Below are positions 27,251 through 28,207 of a DNA stretch of 64,000 nucleotides, piece after piece (within the stretch, counting starts at the first letter, position 1; every line of letters begins with the position of its first letter). The notes under the pieces were generated by a model. That model was not told the DNA's origin and searched no databases. It worked only from the letters and a program-made list of their open reading frames with translations. The DNA comes from Sneathiella sp. GTDB lineage: Bacteria; Pseudomonadota; Alphaproteobacteria; Sneathiellales; Sneathiellaceae. The position numbers and the translations under genes were made by a program. The stretch spans positions 1-64,000 of the forward strand of contig NZ_NZMB01000009.1 in NCBI RefSeq assembly GCF_002694385.1, written 5' to 3'.

Positions 27251-27682
27251 ATGGAAACCGATATGCCTGATGATCAAATTAAAAATTCTATTATTTCAAC
27301 TAATGAAATACTTCTGGGAAGCGCAAATGCAAAATCCATGGCGGCGATGTACTTGAATCTTGCCCATGCCGCCGGAATGGCCTCGCAGAACGCAGTTAGC
27401 AACCAGCAGCATCTCAATATTCTGGGGGCGGCGGCCGTCGCCACCGGCGCCAGCGGCCTGCTCAGAACCGGTTTCGCGTCGCAGGTGGAAAATCTGACCC
27501 CGGCGGAGCGGCTCGATCTGTTGCAGAAGCTGCTGGCGATGACCAATAATAACCAACCCGCCGCCAGCAATGGCGCCGCGCCAGCGGAGGATGGAAAAGC
27601 CACGGCTCCCGCCGATGCTGGAAAGGAAACCACAGATGCCGGAAAGGCACCCGCCGCCCCGGCCGCCGGTGATGCAGGATAA
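27251..27682 (+). CDS. RebB-like R-body protein, paralog 1 (divergent, Ala/Pro tail)
   Basis: 143 residues. The core (INTERVAL about 10-75) contains STNEILLGSANAKSMAAMYL and GMASQNAVSNQQHLNIL, which align with the RebB core of the downstream paralogs (SMGxLYQ...GxSMQNAVANQQ). The C-terminal 40 residues form a low-complexity Ala/Pro/Gly tail with repeated DAGK units. RebB proteins polymerise into R-bodies, coiled ribbons that unroll. This is the first gene after the AT-rich control region. An in-frame ATG at 27263 is an alternative start. Confidence 0.7.
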   Translation: METDMPDDQIKNSIISTNEILLGSANAKSMAAMYLNLAHAAGMASQNAVSNQQHLNILGAAAVATGASGLLRTGFASQVENLTPAERLDLLQKLLAMTNNNQPAASNGAAPAEDGKATAPADAGKETTDAGKAPAAPAAGDAG

Positions 27683-27760
27683 GCACGACCTTCGTTAATT
27701 TATTACAACCATAGATACCTATTTTATTTTACACTCATTCTTTCAAAATGGATTAATCAT

Positions 27761-28207
27761 ATGCCCAGCCCATCCAATTCCGGGGGCGATGCCCCATCCG
27801 GTAAAATCGAGGATTCCGCGAAATTCGCCATGGGACTTCTCTATCAATTCGCCGCTCATTCCTCAGGGCTCGCCCTTGAGAATGCGACCGCCAACTCGAA
27901 CCTGATGAACAGCGTCACCAATTCGGGCGCGGCGGCGCTGACGGCGCTTAAAAACGCCGAGGCCATCTCTATCAGTGCGCAGAAAGCAACCATCGGCGAA
28001 TCCTACAACGCCCAGACTGCCGCCATTACCCAGGCGCTCAATTCCCAGACGCAAGCCGCCGTCACCAGTCTCAACGCCGTAACGAGTGCGGGCGGCACTG
28101 CCCTCGCCGCCCAGACCAGCCAGGACATCGCCGGGATCACCGCTGATGCGGTCGCGGCCACCGCCGTCGCCATGGAAAAGATTGTCAAGCAGATGGGCGG
28201 GGCGTAA
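27761..28207 (+). CDS. RebB-like R-body protein, paralog 2 (divergent, long polar tail)
   Basis: 148 residues. The first 75 residues carry a recognisable Reb-like core (AKFAMGLLYQFAAHSSGLAL then ENATANSNLMNSVTNSGAAA). The second half is Ala/Ser/Thr/Gln-rich with regular short repeats (TQALNSQTQAAVTSLNAVTS), ending in MEKIVKQMGGA. The core departs most from the RebB pattern, so it could be an accessory or capping subunit. A GC hairpin follows the stop codon, and a 505-bp gap separates it from the next paralog. Confidence 0.6.
   Translation: MPSPSNSGGDAPSGKIEDSAKFAMGLLYQFAAHSSGLALENATANSNLMNSVTNSGAAALTALKNAEAISISAQKATIGESYNAQTAAITQALNSQTQAAVTSLNAVTSAGGTALAAQTSQDIAGITADAVAATAVAMEKIVKQMGGA

What the first reader, a model, noticed from the sequence alone, without database searches (positions are those of the whole stretch)
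27251..28207. Two divergent Reb-like proteins with unusual tails may be new accessory subunits
Paralogs 1 and 2 keep only the central Reb core and add long low-complexity tails: Ala/Pro with DAGK repeats in one, Ala/Ser/Thr/Gln-rich repeats in the other. They precede the main series and are set apart by a hairpin and a 505-bp gap. Known R-body loci have few subunits with distinct jobs, so these could be nucleators, caps or adaptors.
Basis: inference. Interest (0 to 1): 0.7.

Follow-up and report, generated by a model that had tools for sequence, protein, structure and literature searches.

The report
Two accessory R-body proteins in Sneathiella
Two odd genes beside a bacterial 'R-body' operon (spring-like protein ribbons) are conserved partners of that operon, and one of them carries a strikingly conserved helical tail of 11-residue repeats, so it is probably a working part of the ribbon machinery rather than a decayed copy.

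Summary
The window holds a seven-gene reb (R-body) cluster of a Sneathiella-type alphaproteobacterium. The finding is real but partly mis-described. P1 (27251-27682) keeps nearly the whole Reb core (PF11747 positions 4-67 of 68) plus a fast-evolving, probably disordered tail; P6 has the same kind of tail. P2 (27761-28207) keeps only part of the core. Its 'Ala/Ser/Thr/Gln' tail is the opposite of filler: 93% mean identity, pN/pS 0.06, no internal length change in 21 orthologues, an 11-residue periodicity, and a confident AlphaFold2 single helix. A sister-genus P2 still has the missing first part of the core, so P2 descends from a Reb. Full-length P2 was found only in this order (25 genomes held), with no clear absence there.

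P1-P2 also look regulated apart: P3-P7 carry an ECF-type promoter (TCACA-N16-CGTC) in 22 of 22 loci; P1 lacks it in Sneathiella but not in the sister genus. Divergent accessory Reb proteins with tails are already published, so the kind is known; this helical-tail variant appears new. Accessory subunits are plausible; nucleator, cap and adaptor remain untested. AlphaFold2 of P1 failed (pLDDT 51).

The parts
26224..27054 (-). ECF-type sigma factor gene, divergent from P1; candidate activator of the reb operon
   Evidence: Sigma70_r2/r4 hits, TIGR02937 71.6 bits; next to P1 in 20 of 20 Sneathiellales loci with P1
27073..27082 (+). TTTTAAAGTG box upstream of P1, conserved in the genus (possible regulator or promoter element)
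   Evidence: 15 of 20 loci with P1; one site in the 64-kb window
27108..27117 (+). TACGNGNGTA box upstream of P1, 34-35 bp after the first box where both occur
   Evidence: 10 of 20 loci with P1
27251..27682 (+). P1: Reb protein with near-complete core (aa 13-76) and a variable tail (aa 101-143)
   Evidence: PF11747 45.2 bits, model 4-67/68; core pN/pS 0.23, tail 0.73
27761..28207 (+). P2: Reb-derived protein; partial core (about aa 18-57), conserved helical tail aa 58-148
   Evidence: PF11747 20.1 bits; sister-genus orthologue 51.7 bits; tail pN/pS 0.06; AF2 one helix 14-144
27932..28204 (+). coding stretch of the 11-residue-repeat tail of P2
   Evidence: lag-11 identity 24 against mean 9.9 in 2000 shuffles, none reach it
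28208..28712 (.). 505-bp gap between P2 and P3; contains the P3 promoter; in 10 of 20 related loci an antisense M24 peptidase gene lies here, not in the window
28626..28650 (+). ECF-type promoter TCACA-N16-CGTC in front of P3
   Evidence: at -85 to -95 of P3 in 22 of 22 loci with P3; only match in the window
28713..29084 (+). P3, typical Reb
   Evidence: PF11747 92.5 bits
29114..29434 (+). P4, typical Reb
   Evidence: PF11747 79.1 bits
29485..29844 (+). P5, typical Reb, most conserved core
   Evidence: PF11747 93.3 bits; core pN/pS 0.03
29967..30362 (+). P6, Reb with a variable Pro/Ala/His tail
   Evidence: PF11747 75.9 bits; tail pN/pS 0.72
30415..30747 (+). P7, typical Reb; best core match of P2
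   Evidence: PF11747 62.7 bits; hhalign with P2 prob 94.8
30819..31085 (+). orphan HTH_Tnp_1 protein, conserved after P7 (candidate regulator)
   Evidence: 21 of 22 loci with P7

Best explanation
P1 and P2 are the accessory Reb module of the Sneathiellales R-body locus. Shown: both descend from Reb proteins, are kept together beside the structural operon, and are under purifying selection. P2 has a short variable leader in place of the first part of the Reb core and carries a 90-residue tail of 11-residue repeats, predicted as part of one helix of about 130 residues. Inferred: P2 joins the ribbon through its remaining core (closest to P7) and its helix makes an extended, invariant contact along other Reb subunits, fixing how assembly starts or how the ribbon edge or centre is built. 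P1 would join through its nearly full core, with a disordered tail outside, as P6 probably does. Inferred regulation: the neighbouring ECF sigma factor drives the P3-P7 operon from TCACA-N16-CGTC, while in Sneathiella P1-P2 come from a different AT-rich promoter region, so accessory and bulk subunits can be made at different times or amounts.
For: Synteny ECF-P1-P2-P3..P7 in the Sneathiellales loci; full-length P2 in 20 of 25 genomes of the order and a contig-cut piece in 1 more; of the 4 without, 2 are 65-66% complete and lack any reb match, and in 2 the contig ends just upstream of P3. P2 tail 93% identity, pN/pS 0.06 against 0.13 for its core. Lag-11 repeat: 0 of 2000 shuffles reach it; lag-11 z 2.0-5.8 in 21 of 21 orthologue tails, 90-91 residues each. 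AF2 helix 14-144, mean pLDDT 86.9. Sister-genus P2 keeps domain 1 (51.7 bits; alignment). Promoter at P3 in 22 of 22; in the sister genus also before P1 and, on the minus strand, in front of the ECF gene. Literature passages: RapA found with R-bodies in PA14, non-redundant Reb proteins in A. caulinodans.
Against: No experiment shows that P1 or P2 is in the ribbon. AF2 readily draws Ala-rich sequences as single helices (recalled), pTM is only 0.37, and the run was monomeric. The hydrophobic moment of the tail is not significant (242 of 2000 shuffles as strong), so a classical coiled coil is not shown. P1 AF2 is unusable (pLDDT 51). The promoter is not tied to this sigma factor by experiment, and in the own genome a slightly longer form of the motif had 3 hits against 2 for the reversed control, so the motif alone is not specific.
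Confidence: 0.5

Rival explanations
1. P2 (and perhaps P1) is an assembly factor or regulator that acts on Reb subunits, for example a soluble chaperone that holds them before polymerisation, and is not built into the ribbon.
For: In A. caulinodans AZC_3784, without Reb similarity, is needed for R-bodies and is stated by the authors not to be a component (passages). Separate promoter region for P1-P2. The P2 core match is partial.
Against: P2 is Reb-derived and its remaining core still aligns with the P5, P6 and P7 profiles (prob 91.7-94.8), which suggests contact in the Reb manner.
Confidence: 0.25
2. P1 and P2 are ordinary extra structural subunits, and the tails are adaptations of Reb domain 4, which is heterogeneous anyway.
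For: The 2026 survey calls domain 4 highly heterogeneous; P6 has a P1-like tail; several Reb clusters have many paralogues.
Against: P2 lacks domain 1 and its QNAVANQQ region is rewritten; its tail is longer than those of P3-P7 and as conserved as the best of them, that of P7. The tail shows no clear relation to the P3-P7 models against shuffles.
Confidence: 0.2
3. P1 and P2 are decaying Reb duplicates.
For: Low Pfam scores; variable P1 tail.
Against: pN/pS 0.06-0.13 over P2 core and tail and 0.23 over the P1 core; open reading frames found in 21 P2 and 20 P1 loci.
Confidence: 0.02

Closest known systems
Secondary Reb groups S1 and S2 (Dorr et al. 2026, PMC13430693; HP1.4 and HP1.3 of Raymann et al. 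2013, PMC3583457; that HP1.4 and HP1.3 equal S1 and S2 is my inference)
   Same: Divergent Reb homologues inside reb clusters; S2 keeps domains 1 and 3 and adds an extended C-terminal region, like P1. On a core tree P1 falls with S1- and S2-like representatives that I picked by size and gene order (support 83, 11 tips).
   Different: S2 tails are described as Pro-rich; P1 tails in most orthologues are not, and no tail homology was seen. P2 does not match the S2-like set (hhalign prob 0.2) and matches the S1-like set only over the core (86).
RapA / group S4 of Pseudomonas aeruginosa PA14 (PMC8322103)
   Same: Reb-cluster accessory protein, found with R-bodies.
   Different: S4 has a long N-terminal extension; no relation to P2 (prob 0.2) or P1 (0.7) with 3 S4-like sequences of my choosing. 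RapA itself was not available to compare.
RebD / group 3
   Same: Short Reb partner of uncertain role; on the core tree P2 sits next to two proteins that I take to be of this type.
   Different: Support only 52 and a long P2 branch (0.96), so not a reliable kinship; those two are short (87 and 99 aa).
AZC_3784 of Azorhizobium caulinodans (PMC5527310)
   Same: A gene of a reb operon that is needed for R-bodies without being a bulk Reb subunit.
   Different: No Reb similarity reported; its sequence was not compared here.

Membership tests
Reb family (PF11747) | P1: whole-protein score over the gathering cut-off of 24 bits | tested here: met
   45.2 bits, model 4-67/68
Reb family (PF11747) | P2 of the window: score over the cut-off | tested here: not met
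   20.1 bits; so the window P2 is called Reb-derived, not a family member
Reb family (PF11747) | P2 orthologues: score over the cut-off | tested here: met
   sister-genus P2 51.7 bits; nine genus genomes 26.9-31.7 bits; the own genome (21.8) and two more (21.6, 21.7) below; the remaining genomes show no P2 match in the list
Reb family (PF11747) | domain 1 with QITD motif (as described in PMC13430693) | tested here: not met
   absent from Sneathiella P2; a related form (NEQTTDAVTQTN) in the sister genus; P1 of the window has DDQIKNS
Reb family (PF11747) | assembly into R-bodies | not testable with these tools
   needs microscopy and proteomics
Secondary group S2 | at least 40% identity to the published seed | not testable with these tools
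Secondary group S2 | P1: Reb core plus Pro-rich C-terminal extension | tested here: inconclusive
   core and extension present, extension not generally Pro-rich in the orthologues; tree support 83 with S1- and S2-like together, 38 with S1-like alone
Group S4 / RapA | P2: sequence relation to S4-like proteins | tested here: not met
   hhalign prob 0.2
Group S3 | P2: sequence relation to S3-like proteins | tested here: not met
   prob 2.6, 2.8 with the extended set
ECF sigma promoter | dependence on the neighbouring sigma factor | not tested
   motif conservation only

The most novel reading that the evidence does not exclude
P2 is a built-in gauge of the R-body: its fixed-length helix with 11-residue repeats (about 130 residues, near 20 nm at 1.5 angstrom per residue) lies along or across the Reb sheet and sets where the ribbon starts, its width or its curl, and it is made apart from the bulk subunits, from its own promoter, as a timed nucleator.
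Probability: 0.15. Interest if true: 0.75.

Novelty: new variant of a known kind. Interest (0 to 1): 0.45.

Why it matters
What decides how an R-body starts, how wide its ribbon is and how it coils is, as far as I know, open, and searches of PDB sequences with P3 and with the P2 profile found no relative. A Reb-derived protein with one conserved, fixed-length helical module, outside the main operon and present throughout one genus that includes cultured species, gives a small, testable handle on that question. The ECF-type promoter suggests a way to switch the structural operon and the accessory pair separately.

Tried and rejected
Tail of P2 as a second Reb domain: rejected; scores against the P3-P7 models are mostly within shuffles (25 tests; in the three best, 12-13 of 300 plain shuffles score as well).

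Tail as a recent DNA tandem repeat: rejected; Tandem Repeats Finder shows none there, though DNA identity at lag 33 is raised (0.47 against 0.34).

Tail elsewhere in the phylum: own genome plus 2 marginal hits in 398 genomes; one sits in a locus whose ORFs looked by eye unlike Reb, the other has 2 stop codons. Full-length P2 outside the order: none in the class sample (385 genomes), the plasmids or the viral contigs. P1 with its tail: only genus members score over 170 bits in 289 class genomes, others match the core; no match in plasmids or phages.

Classical hydrophobic heptad or hendecad coiled coil: not supported. General terminator after P2: not supported. Fold search of the P2 model: no match, uninformative for a single helix. 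P1 structure: failed. A paper search for R-body structure work gave nothing useful beyond the papers already found.

Rows dropped: L053 and L054 (other families) before the promoter, gap, pN/pS and synteny counts; the pN/pS set is 12 chosen loci of the nearer clade (10 have P1 and P2). S1-S4-like representatives were picked by size and gene order, not from the published seeds; the core tree used 91 sequences of my choosing.

Script failures: searches stopped with errors and were rerun in corrected form (63, 65, 85); the profile table came out empty and was redone; the outputs were cut.

Full report
What is there. The window lies in a Sneathiella-type genome: one search names several of the matching relatives as Sneathiella species. 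Seven Reb genes run from 27251 to 30747 on the + strand, behind a divergent ECF-type sigma factor gene and before an orphan HTH protein and recQ (recQ by recall of the sequence). PF11747 finds seven places in the own genome, all in this cluster. P1 scores 45.2 bits, P2 20.1, P3-P7 62.7-93.3.

Conservation. In the order, 23 of 25 genomes held have a reb match, 18 of 18 of good quality. The two without are 65-66% complete. The P1-P2-P3...P7 order holds in the Sneathiellales loci I fetched, as far as their contigs reach. Full-length P2 is in 20 of 25 genomes, a contig-cut piece in one more; the other four are the two incomplete genomes and two where the contig ends just upstream of P3. This is a fixed part of the locus, not a chance neighbour.

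The two tails are opposites. In 12 chosen loci of the nearer clade (10 with P1 and P2), the P1 tail has 22% mean identity and pN/pS 0.73, the P6 tail 29% and 0.72; the P2 tail has 93% and 0.06, lower than its own core (0.13) and equal to the P7 tail. The P2 tail is 90 residues in 20 orthologues and 91 in the window, with no internal gap. Residue identity at lag 11 is 24 against a shuffled mean of 9.9, none of 2000 shuffles reaching it; z is 2.0-5.8 in 21 of 21 orthologues, lag 11 or 22 being the top lag in each, while the other six window proteins have whole-length lag-11 z from -1.4 to 2.7. Of 124 Reb-like ORFs from the sister genus and other families, three had z of 3.5 or more: the sister P2, one S2-like protein whose own top lag is 5, and one Vibrio Reb (3.6). 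AlphaFold2 gives P2 as one helix, residues 14-144, mean pLDDT 86.9, pTM 0.37. The hydrophobic moment is not significant, so I call it a helical repeat, not a coiled coil.

Descent of P2. The sister-genus orthologue (L052) has a domain-1 sequence that Sneathiella P2 lacks and scores 51.7 bits. Core profile comparison gives P7 as the nearest window paralogue (94.8; P6 92.2, P5 91.7). The tree places P2 beside two group-3-like proteins with support of only 52 and a branch of 0.96, so the exact parent is open. The tail is not a second Reb domain by comparison with shuffles.

P1. P1 orthologues form one clade (support 99) that falls with S1- and S2-like proteins (83), as with the secondary groups of the 2026 survey. 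P6 may join them (61). AlphaFold2 of P1 was not usable.

Regulation. TCACA-N16-CGTC lies 85-95 bases before P3 in 22 of 22 Sneathiellales loci with P3, although most of the gap is not alignable between the window and other loci. In Sneathiella no such site precedes P1; in the sister genus there is one before P1, one before P3, and one on the minus strand in front of the ECF gene. Upstream of P1 the genus instead has two boxes, TTTTAAAGTG (15 of 20 loci with P1) and TACGNGNGTA (10 of 20). That a CGTC -10 element suits ECF promoters is recalled knowledge. In 10 of 20 loci an antisense M24 peptidase gene sits between P2 and P3 (family checked on one of them), another sign that P1-P2 and P3-P7 are separate units. 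ECF-like genes also lie near reb genes in three loci of one other genus (33-37% identity) and, more weakly, in Ruegeria (29%), and the 2013 and 2021 papers report sigma factors in reb clusters.

Known and new. Of the 2026 survey I read parts 1-4 of 8 and ran a word search over the main text, in which neither Sneathiella nor repeat occurs. A library search for Sneathiella with R-body gave no paper, and in one for R-body, Reb proteins and hendecad no listed paper holds 'hendecad'. Of the other three papers I saw passages only. Tailed, divergent Reb accessories are known as a kind. The conserved 11-residue-repeat helix, the loss of domain 1, the order-wide fixation and the split promoters are, as far as these searches show, not described.

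Verdict. Accessory subunits are plausible and P2 is the interesting one. Which job it does is not decided by sequence.

Noticed in passing
window 30819-31085: An orphan HTH_Tnp_1 protein of 88 aa follows P7 in 21 of 22 loci; a transposase-type DNA-binding protein that may have been taken over to regulate the reb operon.
   Followed up: partly
   Followed up: partly
L043 7009-7746 and the same place in nine other loci: An antisense M24 metallopeptidase gene (methionine-aminopeptidase-like by recall) sits between P2 and P3 in 10 of 20 loci and is absent from the window.
   Followed up: partly
window 27251-27682: P1 matches PHROG 32040 (phage protein family of unknown function, E 1.8e-9), though no phage record in the collection matched P1 or P5.
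   Followed up: partly
L052 8088-11160: The sister genus has three P5-like Reb genes and no clear P6 in its cluster, and N-terminally long Reb ORFs; the cluster differs from that of Sneathiella.
   Followed up: no
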